Origin: Oscillatoriales cyanobacterium
Lineage (GTDB): Bacteria > Cyanobacteriota > Cyanobacteriia > Cyanobacteriales > Microcoleaceae
Assembly: GCA_004293365.1 (NCBI GenBank)
Contig: RDYN01000042.1
Coordinates: forward strand, 1-64,000
Length of the DNA: 64,000 bases
Reading direction: 5' to 3'
In this document: piece after piece, positions 4,071 through 55,825 of the stretch
Layout: the number at the start of each line of letters is the position of its first letter
How positions within the stretch are numbered: the stretch's first letter is position 1
Translations under genes and position numbers: made by a program
Notes under the pieces: generated by a model
The model's input: only the letters and a program-made list of their open reading frames with translations
Databases searched by the model: none
Told to the model about the DNA's origin: nothing

Positions 4071-4742
4071 ATGCTTTTACTACAGTTCAGCACCTCCCCT
4101 TACTGCCGCAAAGTCCGCTTAGCCCTCGGTTACAAGGGCATCCCCTTTCAAGTAGAAAATTTGACACCGGGCCTGCACGTTTTGAAACTCAAGCCTCTCA
4201 CGGGGGGTTTGAGGACAGTGCCGGTACTGCTGCCTCAACTTGAAGGTCAACCAGGGGCGATCGCAGACTCGACGCAAATTTTGCACTGGATCGATTATAG
4301 TTTTCCTTCGCCACCCCTGGTGCCTGCAGACGAGAGTTTGCAAGCAGAGGCTTGGATGCTGGAAGACTGGCTCGATGAAAGCATCGGCATTGCCACTCGA
4401 TTTGTTTACTACGAGTTTCGCGCCGGTGCGGGCAAGGAAATCGACCCATCTCTTTTGAGCCAGTTAGTGATTCAGTTGGCGCGCCGCCAGTTCGGCATTA
4501 ACCGCGCTTCTGCAAAACTCGCCGAGTTGCGCCTGAGCGCTGCTTTAGGCCTGTTGCAGCGTCGCTGGCAAGATGGTTCCTATTTGGTAGGCGACTCCTT
4601 GAGCGTGGCAGATATTACTGCTGTCGCGCTGCTGAGTCCTTTAGCTTTGATTCCTCAATACCGGATTGAGTATCCTTGGCTGCTGGAGCGCATTGTCAAC
4701 ATTCACGAAGTTTGCGGGGAAACCCTGCCTCCGGGATTTTAA
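4071..4742 (+). CDS. Glutathione S-transferase family protein
   Basis: A 223-residue GST-fold protein. The N-terminal thioredoxin-like domain begins MLLLQFSTSPYCRKVRLAL. The SPYCRKVR motif places a Cys at the glutathione site, as in omega/beta-like classes, and the ADSTQILHWID segment corresponds to the glutathione gamma-Glu contact region. The C-terminal helical domain ends with VGDSLSVADITAVALLSPLA, the GST N-capping box. The frame extends upstream to 3996, but that stretch overlaps a hairpin and would prepend 25 residues ahead of the conserved beta-strand, so ATG 4071 is preferred. Substrate unknown; disulfide or xenobiotic chemistry is plausible. Confidence 0.85.
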   Translation: MLLLQFSTSPYCRKVRLALGYKGIPFQVENLTPGLHVLKLKPLTGGLRTVPVLLPQLEGQPGAIADSTQILHWIDYSFPSPPLVPADESLQAEAWMLEDWLDESIGIATRFVYYEFRAGAGKEIDPSLLSQLVIQLARRQFGINRASAKLAELRLSAALGLLQRRWQDGSYLVGDSLSVADITAVALLSPLALIPQYRIEYPWLLERIVNIHEVCGETLPPGF

Positions 4743-5127
4743 AGTGTAGCGGGCGGGCGATCGCCCCAGCCTGAAAATTCCACCAATTAATCATCATTGA
4801 GTTCTCGGCCAAACTCACCCTCCTTGGCCCCCTCGGTTCGCAAATCCACCAGAATTTGCCAAAAACTTAGGTATCACAAAGGTTAAAAAAAGTCAAGGAT
4901 ATTATCGGAAAAATATAAATTTTTCAATCTGTTTTAATATTTCTATACTTAGATGTTAGCCCTTAGCAGTAAAAGCACAGCTCGATCGCCAGCAAGGCGA
5001 CAGCACGCACTCGATTGCAGCGAGCGTGGTAGCATTAGCGATCAAAAATGTATCCAAATGTAAAGTGCAGCGCCCCTCTAGGTTTTGAAAGCCACCATTT
5101 AGTCAAAAGATTGAGGTAAGTAGTTTT
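4743..5127. other. Spacer upstream of glgB
   Basis: 385 bp, AT-rich in the middle (4870-4960), presumably holding the glgB promoter. No ORF, RNA or clear inverted repeat was identified, and no regulator site could be assigned. Confidence 0.4.
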
Positions 5128-7422
5128 ATGCCCGTGACCGTCCCCTTTGAACAGATTGACCGAATTGTTTGGAATCAGCACCACGATCCATTTGAAGTGC
5201 TAGGCCCCCACGCGATCGAAGAAAATGGCAAAAAAGTCTGGGCCGTCCGAGCTTATCTGCCCAATGCCGAAGCAGTATCGGTAGTTTTGCCCGAGGCGAG
5301 GGCCGAATACCCAATGAAATCAGAGCATCACCCTCACTTTTTTGAATGTACGATCGACACCCCAGAACTAGCAAACTATCAACTGCGGGTCAAAGAAGGG
5401 GAACACGAACGCTTTATCTACGACCCCTACGCCTTTCGATCGCCCAAACTCACAGAATTTGACCTGCACCTATTCTCAGAAGGCAACCACCACCGGATTT
5501 ACGAAAAACTAGGAGCCCACTTCACCGAAGTAGACGGCATCACAGGAGTATATTTTGCAGTTTGGGCTCCGAATGCCCGCAACGTATCAGTCTTAGGAGA
5601 TTTCAACCTTTGGGACGGCCGCAAACATCAAATGCGGAAATCGCAAAACGGCATCTGGGAATTATTCATTCCGGGACTAGACCTAGGAACTCACTACAAA
5701 TACGAAGTGAAAAACCAAGACGGACATCCCTACGAAAAATCCGATCCCTACGGTTTCCAGCAAGAAGTACGGCCCAAAACAGCCTCAATTGTCACCGACT
5801 TAGATACCTACACTTGGCACGACAGCGATTGGATCGAACAGCGGCGGCACACAGACCAACTAACGCAGCCGGTTTCGGTTTACGAATGCCACATCGGTTC
5901 TTGGCTGCACGCGGGTACAGCCGAACCTGCGGTACTGCCAAACGGAGAAATACAACCAGCAGTGCCGGTTTCGGAACTGAATCCGGGCGCGCGCTTTTTG
6001 ACTTACCGCGAATTGGCCGATCGGCTAATTCCCTACGTCAAAGACTTAGGATTCACCCACATCGAAATGCTGCCCATCGCCGAACATCCCTTCGACGGTT
6101 CCTGGGGCTATCAAGTAACAGGCTATTTCGCCCCAACATCCCGCTACGGCACACCCGAAGATTTCATGTATTTCGTTGACCAATGCCACGCCAGCGGCAT
6201 AGGCGTACTCGTGGACTGGGTGCCGGGACATTTCCCCAAAGACGGCCACGGTTTAGCTTTCTTTGACGGAACTCACTTGTACGAACACGCCGATCCCCGC
6301 AAGGGCGAGCACAAAGAGTGGGGAACCCTAGTATTTAACTACGGCCGCAACGAAGTTAGAAATTTCCTAGTATCAAATGCTCTGTTCTGGTTTGACAAGT
6401 ATCACATCGACGGCATTCGCGTAGATGCAGTAGCCTCGATGCTGTACTTAGATTACTGCCGCGAACCCGGAGAATGGCTGACCAACCAGTACGGCGGCCG
6501 CGAAAATATCGAGGCGGCAGATTTTCTGCGCCAGACAAATCATACAATTTTTAGCTATTTCCCAGGTGCGCTGTCGATCGCCGAAGAATCTACCTCTTGG
6601 CCGATGGTATCTTGGCCGACTTATGTGGGCGGCTTGGGCTTCAACCTCAAGTGGAACATGGGTTGGATGCACGATATGCTCGACTATTACCACATGGATC
6701 CGTGGTTCCGCCAGTTCCACCAGAACAACATAACTTTTAGTATGTGGTACAACCACAGCGAGAATTTCATGCTGGCTTTATCCCACGATGAAGTCGTCCA
6801 CGGCAAGTCCCACATCATCGGGAAAATGCCAGGGGACGAATGGCAAAAGTTTGCAAACGTGCGGTGTTTGTTTACCTTTATGTTTGCCCATCCCGGAAAG
6901 AAAACGATGTTTATGGGGATGGAGTTCGGCCAGTGGCAAGAGTGGAACGTTTGGGGCGACTTGGAGTGGCAGTTGCTGCAATTTGAGCCACACCAAAAGT
7001 TGAAGCTATTTTTCAAGGATTTGAACAATTTGTACCGCAGCGAAACGGCACTTTACAGTCAAGATTTTGCTGAGGATGGGTTTGAGTGGATTGATTGCAG
7101 CGACAACAGACACAGCGTGGTGGCCTTTGTGCGCCGCCAGAAGGATGGCGACGAGTTTGTGGTGACGGTGTGCAATTTTACGCCGCAACCGCACTCTCAC
7201 TATCGCGTCGGAGTGCCGGAACCGGGTTTCTATACGGAGTTGTTTAACAGCGACGCGCGGGAGTACGGCGGCAGCAATATGGGGAATTTGGGGGGTAAGT
7301 GGACTGATGAGTGGTGGTTCCACAACAGTGCTTATTCGATCGACTTGTGTTTGCCGCCTTTGGGTGTGTTGATCTTAAAGATCGATCGGGAAAAAACAGG
7401 AGCAAAATCTCAAGAGTTTTAA
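5128..7422 (+). CDS. glgB: 1,4-alpha-glucan branching enzyme GlgB
   Basis: Forms alpha-1,6 branches in glycogen by cleaving and transferring alpha-1,4 glucan segments. The 764 residues contain an N-terminal CBM48-type beta-sandwich region (two copies; the second around [20 protein letters not shown], about residue 140-160), a GH13 barrel and a C-terminal all-beta domain. Catalytic residues are present with the same spacing as in the E. coli enzyme: Asp433 (DGIRVDAV), Glu486 (AEEST) and Asp554 ([10 protein letters not shown]). The ATG at 5128 gives the expected full length. The gene stands alone here, without glgA, glgC or glgX, as is common in cyanobacteria. A hairpin with T6 at 7486-7516 ends it. 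Confidence 0.97.
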
Positions 7423-10030: not shown

Positions 10031-10162
10031 AATTCCTGTTAGATAATTCTACACCGTTAGATTCAACGAAATTTTGTTTAATGAGTTGACTGATGAGAGG
10101 GTAAGAAACTGTTCGTTGTTTTCCCAACATATTTGGACATTCCTTCCTGTTTGGGTACTTTT

Positions 10163-10312
10163 TCACCCATAGCTGTAACCGTCCTTTTGATGAATTGGTT
10201 TTTCGACATATTCGAGCTTGATACCAATCCGTTTTTTGCCGAAAGTGAGATAGATTTCGCCCTTACCATTGCTGTACGGGCATAGCCTCGCGATATACGT
10301 TCCAGCATTCAC
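10163..10312 (-). pseudogene. Out-of-frame C-terminal end of iscB
   Basis: In the frame one nucleotide away from the iscB reading frame, 10312 to 10163 encodes 49 residues ending in a natural stop. They include AGTYIARLCPYSNGKGEIYL, KKRIGIKLEYVEKPIHQ and the terminal DGYSYG, which is the typical IscB C-terminal beta-region and DGYxY end. In the main frame, translation instead leaves the family consensus after GFCTGDIVKTVIP and stops at 10263. A single extra base between about 10312 and 10330 explains both observations. Confidence 0.85.
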
Positions 10313-11444
10313 ACATGAGAGGAATCACTGTTTTCACAATGTCACCAGTGCAAAAACCATGAATCGGACGCAACGGACGGTACTTCTGTGGATAGCCGAG
10401 TTTATCGGTTTGACATCGCTGCCGTCCGCCTTGACCTGTCGATTTGACTCGCAGAATTTTACTGGTTAAGACTTTAAGAGATTCAACCACACCTACACAG
10501 GCAGCATCTAACCAATGCTCTTTAGGCAGTCCTAACCGAGTACGGTTGTATTTGGTTTGCCCACCTGTCCCCGTCTTAACTGGCAACCCAGTTGCTTTTA
10601 GCATCAAGAATAGCTTCCAGCGAGTAGAGTTCACCGCAGCCGCATCTTTTAGCGGTGATGAAGCTTGTTTGAGGATTCGAGAAACCAGATCGGGCTTGCC
10701 TTTAAGAAAGTCTCGAATGTCTTTGTTTCCTTTCTTTAAGTTGCACTTCTCACAGGCCAAACACAGGTTAGAAACTCGGTCAGTGCCACCATTGGCCCGT
10801 GCTTGAATATGTTCTATCTGCAAGGGCACACCTTCTTTTGAGCAGTAAGTACATTTGCGTCCCCACTTCACAAGAAGATACTCGCGCACCTCATAGCCTG
10901 CTAGAGTTCCTTGCTGATAGTCAGTTCCAGAGATTTCTGGATTCTGCATTTGCTGCATATCAAATTTGACAAGTTCTTGTCTGATTTGGGCCACAGGCGC
11001 AAATTTGCAGAGTCGTTTCACCCACGTTTCAACCGTCAAAACACGGTGCATTAAGCTAGGTGCTAACCAACCTTTTGCACGACTGCGGTTGAGAAACCGA
11101 GCCTGACGGTAGCGAGTATGGCGCCCTCTTCGCCCTCGGCGAACAGCTCTACGTGCTAAGAGAGCGTCCTTGATGCCTTGCCCTCGGTGTTCCAGTTCCA
11201 TCCCCCAGATCGCCTCATTCTGGTTAGTGACAAGGCTGATTCCGGTCGTTTTAGAACCTGGATCGATCTTGAGTGCGAGCGGATAAGTGACGATGTTCTC
11301 CACAGCCCGATTCACGATCAGCGTGAATGGATAACGCCGAAACACGGCAGCTTTGCCTGCTTCCATCAGCTTTCGAGCATGAGCCGGATGAATGGGATTC
11401 ATCGGTGTTTTGTTTGCATCAATCAGAAAAACGTAGTTGCTCAT
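10263..11444 (-). CDS. iscB: IscB RNA-guided endonuclease, C-terminally frameshifted
   Basis: IscB is the RuvC/HNH nuclease ancestral to Cas9, guided by an omegaRNA encoded just upstream. From ATG 11444 (393 residues as read) the domains are: PLMP domain (2-55), RuvC-I with Asp61 (KIDPGSKTTG), Arg-rich bridge helix (98-122), RuvC-II Glu157 (IRQELVKF), HNH with Cys198/Cys201, His212 (EHI), Asn226, Cys231/Cys234, and RuvC-III Asp313 (HWLDAACVG). All catalytic residues are present. The frame opens at 11492, but the PLMP domain fixes the start at 11444. The C-terminal ~50 residues are displaced into another frame (10163-10312), so the nuclease lacks its normal end unless frameshifting occurs. No tnpA lies nearby. 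Confidence 0.93.
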   Translation of the reverse strand: MSNYVFLIDANKTPMNPIHPAHARKLMEAGKAAVFRRYPFTLIVNRAVENIVTYPLALKIDPGSKTTGISLVTNQNEAIWGMELEHRGQGIKDALLARRAVRRGRRGRHTRYRQARFLNRSRAKGWLAPSLMHRVLTVETWVKRLCKFAPVAQIRQELVKFDMQQMQNPEISGTDYQQGTLAGYEVREYLLVKWGRKCTYCSKEGVPLQIEHIQARANGGTDRVSNLCLACEKCNLKKGNKDIRDFLKGKPDLVSRILKQASSPLKDAAAVNSTRWKLFLMLKATGLPVKTGTGGQTKYNRTRLGLPKEHWLDAACVGVVESLKVLTSKILRVKSTGQGGRQRCQTDKLGYPQKYRPLRPIHGFCTGDIVKTVIPLMCECWNVYREAMPVQQW

Positions 11445-11449
11445 GGTGT

Positions 11450-11690
11450 TTTGGTCGGTTTGACCAATCCTTAGTAATGTTTGCTTCGACAATGCTCTTA
11501 AGGCTTGTCATGCAGTATCAGAGGGCTTTCTAGATGTCTCGCCTTTAGTTGATAGTTGCGACAGAGCGGAAAACTAGCGTTCATTCTCCGGTGTCATGAC
11601 CTTGAGAGCGTAGCCAACCTTGCTTTTCGGGCAGGTAACTCTTTTTACGGCTCAGTCATGCACGCTCATCCCACCTACCCAAAATGTTTA
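11450..11690 (-). ncRNA. HEARO / omegaRNA region of the iscB element (approximate limits)
   Basis: IscB genes are preceded by a structured RNA of roughly 200 nt (HEARO, also called omegaRNA), with the guide at its 5' end. Here the minus-strand region upstream of iscB, read from about 11690 down to 11450, has no ORF. It contains GC-rich segments able to pair, such as AAGGTTGGCTACGCTCTCAA and GGTCATGACACCGGAG. The location and lack of coding fit an omegaRNA. I did not fold it, and both ends, including the guide, are estimates. Confidence 0.65.
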
Positions 11691-12486
11691 GTTCTGTGTA
11701 GCTATGGGTAGACATTTACGAGCGGTAAGGTTTAGGTAGGTTTCACCCCCTATATCTCTCGCCTGCGGTGATGGCGCTGCACTTTCATCCCCTGTCTTAT
11801 AGTAATTGATCCACAGAGAGCTGAAAGAAATAATTGTTTCCCAATCTTTTGACCCTGGAATTACCAACTGCACAACACGGCAGTCACGGGAGCATCTCAG
11901 TTTTGAAAAAAGCATTTTTTATTATAGTGCGAGGGTCCCCGCTCGCGAGTATTGCAGGACTCGCGAGCGGGGACCCTCGCACTATTAAATCCAAAACTCA
12001 GATGCTCCCGGCAGTCACTCGATCGATTTGAGATTTTCCGTTTGGGATTTAAGATTTAGACCTATTGGCAAAAATAATGCAACTCTCGGCTCGCGATCGA
12101 ATCCATACGGAATAAGTCATTGCTCGTTGCTCACCGCCCATGGAAAATCGAAAATGTTACTACTGCACAGACTCATCTGGGAGTTTGAACTCTTAGTCTC
12201 AAATTTGGGGCTGCTGGCGGCTGTGGGAAAGCAAGTATCGGTTTTTTTGGTGGGAGGAGAGATACAGGAGTAGCTATTTCCCCCTTTTTCCTTCTGTTTG
12301 CCGGAAAGCGCAGCCGAAGGGCATTCTTGTTTGTTGCTTCCTGCTTAAGAGTGACCAATTACTAATTACCAATTACTAATTGCGAACTACTAATTATTGG
12401 CTGCTCGATCGCTCGTTCAATGGCAAACGCGCTCTTGTCTCACATTTTTTGCTAGGATGATTCATCGCCGTGCAATTTTTTTAGTC
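11691..12486. other. Non-coding stretch between the iscB element and the adenylyltransferase gene
   Basis: About 800 bp without a convincing gene. It contains the nested inverted repeat at 11888-12009 and a heptad repeat (ATTACTA/ATTACCA) at 12355-12390, with otherwise degenerate sequence. Several short frames exist on both strands but none has a plausible start, composition or motif. Confidence 0.5.
11888..12009. repeat. Nested long inverted repeat
   Basis: The inner arms are a perfect 27-bp match (11924-11950 with 11959-11985, 8-nt loop, GC-rich). The outer arms are 18 bp with one mismatch (11888-11905 with 11992-12009). The tract CGGCAGTCAC flanks both sides in direct orientation (about 11878-11887 and 12009-12018), possibly a target-site duplication of an inserted element. 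Confidence 0.85.
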
Positions 12487-55557: not shown

Positions 55558-55590
55558 CCATACCTCGTAGATGCGTTCAAAAGTTAGTTA

Positions 55591-55735
<145 letters not shown>

Positions 55736-55825
55736 TCAAATCCTATCATACTTGCCGCCCTTTCCCAAAAAAGTTATCTTGGTAAAAGCAAGTTTTAATA
55801 TCTACCCACATAAATTAACCCCGTT

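What the first reader, a model, noticed from the sequence alone, without database searches (positions are those of the whole stretch)
10163..11444. iscB with intact nuclease core but a +1 frameshift before its C-terminal domain
The reading frame holds all RuvC and HNH residues, then departs from the IscB consensus after GFCTGDIVKTVIP and stops at 10263. The missing end (AGTYIARLCPYSNGKGEIYL through DGYSYG) is fully preserved one frame over, down to its natural stop at 10163. Everything else is undamaged, so this is either a very recent loss of function, a sequencing error, or expression by frameshifting.
Basis: partly seen in the sequence, partly recalled or inferred. Interest (0 to 1): 0.75.

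Follow-up and report, generated by a model that had tools for sequence, protein, structure and literature searches.

The report
Frameshifted iscB mobile-element nuclease gene
A cyanobacterial copy of a transposon-carried RNA-guided DNA-cutting gene (iscB) has a small mutation that garbles its last domain, most likely an ordinary recent inactivation of one copy rather than a new expression mechanism.

Summary
On the minus strand an iscB gene runs from ATG 11444 with its RuvC and HNH catalytic residues, leaves the family frame at about 10324-10307 and stops at 10265-10263. The rest of the protein continues in the +1 frame from 10306 to TGA 10165-10163. It sits in an otherwise complete-looking IscB element: left end about 11720, HEARO/omegaRNA 11665-11474, iscB, right end about 10103.

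The change leaves strand 1 and removes strands 2-5 of the C-terminal five-stranded beta-barrel, presumably the TAM-interacting (TI) domain. That should abolish double-stranded DNA targeting and spare the nuclease core. A sequencing slip is unlikely: 0 of 81 orthologous ORFs in the window are split between frames, and several neighbouring bases are changed. Recoding is unlikely: of 146 copies spanning the site 141 are in one frame, and none of the other four broken ones has this shift; RNA folding there is unremarkable. Broken iscB copies are common; one of three loci in this genome is intact.

Best reading: recent loss of one iscB copy. Low-probability novel reading: a natural TI-less IscB acting on single strands, like engineered R-IscB. 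Two copies in another genome have a stop at nearly the same point.

The parts
10266..11444 (-). iscB zero-frame ORF: PLMP region, RuvC-I to III, bridge helix, HNH, first strand of the C-terminal barrel, then about 18 out-of-family residues; stop TAA 10265-10263
   Evidence: D61, E157, H212, H310 and D313 (alignment numbering) conserved in the window row
10163..10306 (-). rest of the IscB C-terminal (presumed TAM-interacting) domain in the +1 frame, 47 codons plus stop TGA
   Evidence: against the intact Phorm 6 copy 17 of 47 codons unchanged, 18 changed synonymously, 12 non-synonymously
10307..10324 (-). site of the reading-frame change; block differs from the AAA-GG(T/C) codons of the seven closest relatives shown
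   Evidence: alignment; frame limits
11474..11665 (-). HEARO / omegaRNA scaffold upstream of iscB
   Evidence: Rfam RF02033, 65.9 bits, E 1.6e-12, below the gathering score of 83; near relatives L080-L084 score 65.3-77.6, the other seven sources 86.7-171
11709..11720 (-). left end of the element, directly after host CTTACC (boundary by eye)
   Evidence: similarity to host sequence of G023 and G011 fades here; similarity to the L005 and L006 elements begins about here
10103..10162 (-). right-end segment after iscB, ending near ...CTTACC (boundary by eye); host sequence resumes at about 10102

Best explanation
A single, fairly recent mutation at the start of the C-terminal domain has inactivated one copy of an IS200/IS605-type iscB element in a Microcoleus-like cyanobacterium. 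Shown: the two frames, the conserved core, the omegaRNA match, the element ends by comparison, and close homologues in one frame. Inferred: translation stops at 10263 and yields a 393-residue protein without strands 2-5 of the TAM-interacting beta-barrel and with a scrambled end. Such a protein could still bind omegaRNA but should not recognise the TAM, so it should no longer cut double-stranded DNA at the empty donor site. The element is then a non-functional or trans-dependent passenger.
For: The nine best-matching genus loci L005-L013 each hold core and tail in one frame, among them the Phorm 6 copy, 79% identical in the core, and the G006/G011 copies, 77%. No other copy has this shift, and the 18-mer at the site occurs in 5 of 265 fetched loci, all five being this same place. 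Broken iscB copies are common: in this genome one of three loci over the family cut-off is intact, and the C80 copy is in three frames. The tail still shows a third-position excess of differences against Phorm 6 (9/7/23 by codon position; core 70/48/187), so little decay has followed. The model of the intact relative has a five-stranded C-terminal unit at 368-418; in the model of the window protein 357-393 is under pLDDT 50. [quoted passage not shown]
Against: No reads were available. The core shows no second lesion, so a function of the truncated protein cannot be ruled out. Calling the lost barrel the TI domain rests on a predicted model of moderate confidence (mean pLDDT 75.7, pTM 0.61) and on a structural alignment to OgeuIscB that spans model 1-426 and chain 1-492 with 221 aligned residues (8csz_D, Z 21.3). 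It does not rest on sequence similarity: the profile match to OgeuIscB ends before this domain.
Confidence: 0.83

Rival explanations
1. Assembly or sequencing error: the real gene is intact in one frame.
For: Most copies are single-frame and the rest of this gene is undamaged.
Against: 0 of 81 orthologous ORFs (at least 120 aa, from stretches of G006 and G011, so some window genes count twice and opposite-strand ORFs are included; hits under 75% identity or 85% coverage dropped) are split between frames in the window. Eight rows were flagged for in-frame stops; six lie opposite larger ORFs and two differ by three or four codons at one end. The site is not a homopolymer and several neighbouring bases differ from the conserved codons.
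Confidence: 0.08
2. Programmed +1 frameshifting or transcriptional slippage makes full-length IscB.
For: The tail is preserved in the +1 frame, and the two frames overlap for 59 bases.
Against: The shift is not conserved in any other copy examined. The longest single-base run in the overlap is three bases, and I saw no known slippery or shifty-stop motif (sequence read by eye, motifs recalled). RNA structure z -0.07.
Confidence: 0.03
3. The truncated protein is functional as a natural TI-less IscB that binds single-stranded RNA or DNA, like engineered R-IscB.
For: Core and catalytic residues intact, omegaRNA present. PMC12991159 (part 1 of 4 of the text and found passages seen) reports that removing the TI domain turns OgeuIscB into a single-strand binder. 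Two iscB copies in genome G037 carry a TAA at the equivalent point.
Against: One locus only. About 18 unrelated residues follow the break. The G037 copies have close relatives without the stop in G037 and G038, one of them (L137) also has an inserted codon in the RuvC-III region, and no selection on the truncated form is shown.
Confidence: 0.05

Closest known systems
IscB of IS200/IS605-type elements (NCBIfam NF040563)
   Same: Core architecture, catalytic residues, HEARO/omegaRNA upstream, element ends beside a TTACC-like sequence
   Different: C-terminal presumed TAM-interacting domain split off by a frame change
   Same: 79% core identity, same tail type, same element layout
   Different: Single open frame of 426 codons
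R-IscB, engineered TI-less OgeuIscB (PMC12991159, passages seen)
   Same: Nuclease core without the TI domain
   Different: R-IscB is designed, keeps the strand that follows the TI domain and carries other mutations; the window protein ends in unrelated residues and is untested

Membership tests
IscB (RNA-guided endonuclease) | IscB profile match over the curated cut-off | tested here: met
   456.8 bits vs 175
IscB (RNA-guided endonuclease) | RuvC D/E/H/D and HNH His conserved | tested here: met
   D61, E157, H310, D313 and H212 in the window row of A1; roles transferred from OgeuIscB (PMC9640706 passages)
IscB (RNA-guided endonuclease) | HEARO/omegaRNA directly upstream | tested here: met
   RF02033 65.9 bits, below the gathering score of 83 but like the near relatives L080-L084 (65.3-77.6); seven other sources score 86.7-171
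IscB (RNA-guided endonuclease) | C-terminal TAM-interacting domain in the same ORF | tested here: not met
   Tail lies in the +1 frame; so this is a disrupted iscB, not an intact IscB
IscB (RNA-guided endonuclease) | RNA-guided dsDNA cleavage | not testable with these tools
   needs biochemistry
Programmed frameshift gene | Shift conserved in relatives | tested here: not met
   of 146 distinct copies spanning the site only this one has a shift between profile positions 374 and 379
R-IscB-like single-strand effector | TI-less core binds guide-matched single strands | not testable with these tools
   needs biochemistry

The most novel reading that the evidence does not exclude
Natural IscB lineages repeatedly shed the TAM-interacting barrel at its first strand (frameshift here, a stop in two copies of genome G037), giving truncated omegaRNA-guided proteins that bind single-stranded RNA or DNA instead of cutting double-stranded DNA: a natural counterpart of engineered R-IscB.
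Probability: 0.05. Interest if true: 0.75.

Novelty: new member of a known kind. Interest (0 to 1): 0.22.

Why it matters
If ordinary, it is one more decaying copy that shows how readily iscB dies in genomes rich in these elements. If the truncated form works, it would show that evolution makes the same TI-less form that engineers made to turn IscB into an RNA-targeting tool.

Tried and rejected
Programmed frameshifting: rejected for lack of conservation, motif and RNA structure. A separate restart for the tail: a GTG lies in the tail frame just before AGTY, but I saw no ribosome-binding sequence before it (by eye); not tested further. Local copying from the element's right junction: the 8-mer CCTCTCAT occurs at the damaged site (10322-10315) and at the right host junction (10100-10093), 4 times in the window against 1.40 expected, with 3 of 100 shuffles reaching 4; post hoc, left unexplained.

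A conserved stop/recoding in G037: two copies share a TAA at the equivalent point, and tail differences between them are 5 of 129 bases, 4 at third positions. One other G037 copy and four G038 copies shown lack the stop, and L229 is closer to the stop-free G038 copies (96.5-96.6%) than to L227, with which it shares the stop (94.9%), so gene conversion or shared descent suffices.

C-terminal clustering of breaks: considered and dropped, because the 20 regions fetched were mostly chosen for being short or carrying stops, so one search is not an unbiased sample. Its internal breaks lie from profile position about 47 to 394. Left out of that count were L001, L004 and L050 (this locus again), L002 and L003 (own genome; the C80 copy re-enters as L155, L003 is open in one frame), L034-L049 (fetched for flanks), domain hits under 8 bits and chains under 60 bits; identical copies were counted once.

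Mobilising transposase: a Y1-transposase search of this genome gave four matches over the cut-off, three of them in open frames of 202-208 residues; whether any moves this element was not tested.

Wider copies: the genome-contig scan gave 56 loci, best 79%. The plasmid search gave 77 records, 7 of them in the 60-80% identity band and the best listed 64.3%. Paper searches (most listings capped) listed no paper that by title or abstract start is about natural frameshifted or TI-less IscB.

Full report
What is there. The window comes from a Microcoleus-like cyanobacterium. The nearest genomes seen are G006 and G011, which by matching contig lengths are Oscillatoriales cyanobacterium PH2015_09S_45_247 and Microcoleus sp. 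bin48, with 97.5-97.7% identity over about 906 bases of the neighbouring hpsJ region (hpsJ by NCBIfam). On the minus strand an iscB gene starts at ATG 11444 and is open for 393 codons to TAA 10265-10263. The usual end of the protein follows in the +1 frame from 10306 to TGA 10165-10163. The core scores 456.8 bits against the IscB model (cut-off 175). In an alignment with ten relatives the catalytic residues are present: D61, E157, H310 and D313 of RuvC, H212 of HNH (roles by transfer from OgeuIscB, PMC9640706, passages seen).

The element around it. A HEARO/omegaRNA match covers 11665-11474 (65.9 bits, under Rfam's gathering score of 83). The near relatives score alike (L080 75.0, L081 65.3, L082 76.9, L083 77.6, L084 74.4). 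The other seven of the 12 sources score higher, 86.7-171, among them this genome's broken C80 copy with 118.2. The low score therefore looks like a property of this subfamily, not decay. Host sequence shared with other Microcoleus-group genomes ends in CTTACC at about 11721, where sequence shared with other IscB elements begins. On the right the element ends in ...CTTACC at about 10103 and host sequence resumes at about 10102 (boundaries by eye). Relative to G023 about 600 bp of host intergenic DNA is missing on the right side (259-867 of the L036 stretch used). In G011 and G006 a TnpB-type gene lies at the same CTTACC (named by eye, not searched; the two stretches are 99% identical).

The break. 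Of the nine single-frame relatives shown, the seven closest have AAA-GG(T/C) codons (PKG) at the site; the two more distant ones have other residues. The window has a changed block of about seven bases there, which shifts the frame. Both sides of the break are at ordinary divergence from the Phorm 6 copy: differences by codon position 70/48/187 over 375 core codons, 9/7/23 over 47 tail codons. The tail has not visibly decayed, so the break is young relative to that divergence.

What is lost. The model of the intact relative L080 (426 residues, 29 sequences, mean pLDDT 75.7, pTM 0.61) ends in five strands at 368-374, 381-389, 394-399, 406-409 and 413-418. It aligns from end to end to OgeuIscB (8csz_D, model 1-426, chain 1-492, Z 21.3, rmsd 2.9, 221 aligned). 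PMC9640706 describes the TI domain as a five-stranded beta-barrel whose last strand joins the RuvC sheet (section 7). In the model of the window's 393-residue protein (25 sequences, mean pLDDT 73.7), 357-393 is under pLDDT 50. The frameshift therefore leaves strand 1 and removes strands 2-5 of the presumed TI domain.

Is it an artefact? Of 81 ORFs of at least 120 aa from the fetched stretches of G006 and G011 with a match in the window (at least 75% identity and 85% coverage; lesser matches dropped), 73 are single and open, none is split between frames, and eight have an in-frame stop. Six of the eight rows lie opposite a larger ORF and the other two differ by three or four codons at one end. 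Small indel errors are thus rare here. Reads would settle it.

Is it recoding? Of 154 distinct copies, 120 are full length in one frame and 34 are not, this one included. Part of the sample was chosen for being short or broken, so this is not a rate. Of 146 that span profile positions 360-400, 141 do so in one frame. The five others are this one, L182 (frame change at 393/394), L112 (in-frame stop at 362-365) and L136 and L137 (in-frame stop at 372-384). In the same genome three loci pass the IscB cut-off: C26 intact, C80 in pieces, and this one (the C80 copy is in three frames). RNA folding at the site equals shuffles (z -0.07).

A parallel. Two copies in genome G037 have TAA at profile position 372-384, with the rest of the domain open behind it. 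They are 95.3% identical over 1566 bases. Copies in G037 and G038 without the stop exist. This is a second, separate loss of the same domain, perhaps spread by copying or gene conversion. It keeps the R-IscB-like reading alive but does not support it strongly: one of the two copies (L137) also has an inserted codon in the RuvC-III region.

Verdict. A real, recent inactivating mutation in one copy of a common mobile-element nuclease is most likely. The bold alternative is a natural TI-less, single-strand-binding IscB, by analogy with R-IscB (PMC12991159: part 1 of 4 of the text and found passages seen).

Noticed in passing
11921-11988: A near-perfect 68-base inverted repeat between the element and the next gene; weak matches, far under the gathering scores, to plant microRNA families. 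Looks like a small palindromic repeat.
   Followed up: no
L034 about 4219-5340 (G011:C104) and the same place in G006:C59: A TnpB-type gene (named by eye) sits at the same CTTACC where the window has the IscB element, so this intergenic region beside hpsJ seems to be used by different IS200/IS605-type elements in sister genomes.
   Followed up: partly
window right flank at 10102; L036 as reference: About 600 bp of host DNA present in G023 is missing beside the right end of the IscB element.
   Followed up: partly
L081 (Chamaesiphon) and L008 (G025) against L080: Copies whose cores are 79% and 74% identical to the window core have a quite different C-terminal domain, which suggests that this domain is exchanged between elements.
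   Followed up: no
L227, L229 (G037) against L228, L230 (G038): TAA shared by two copies at the start of the TI domain although L229 is closer overall to stop-free copies, as expected from gene conversion.
   Followed up: partly
55580-55743, minus strand: Cobalamin riboswitch, 50.3 bits against a gathering score of 31.5.
   Followed up: no
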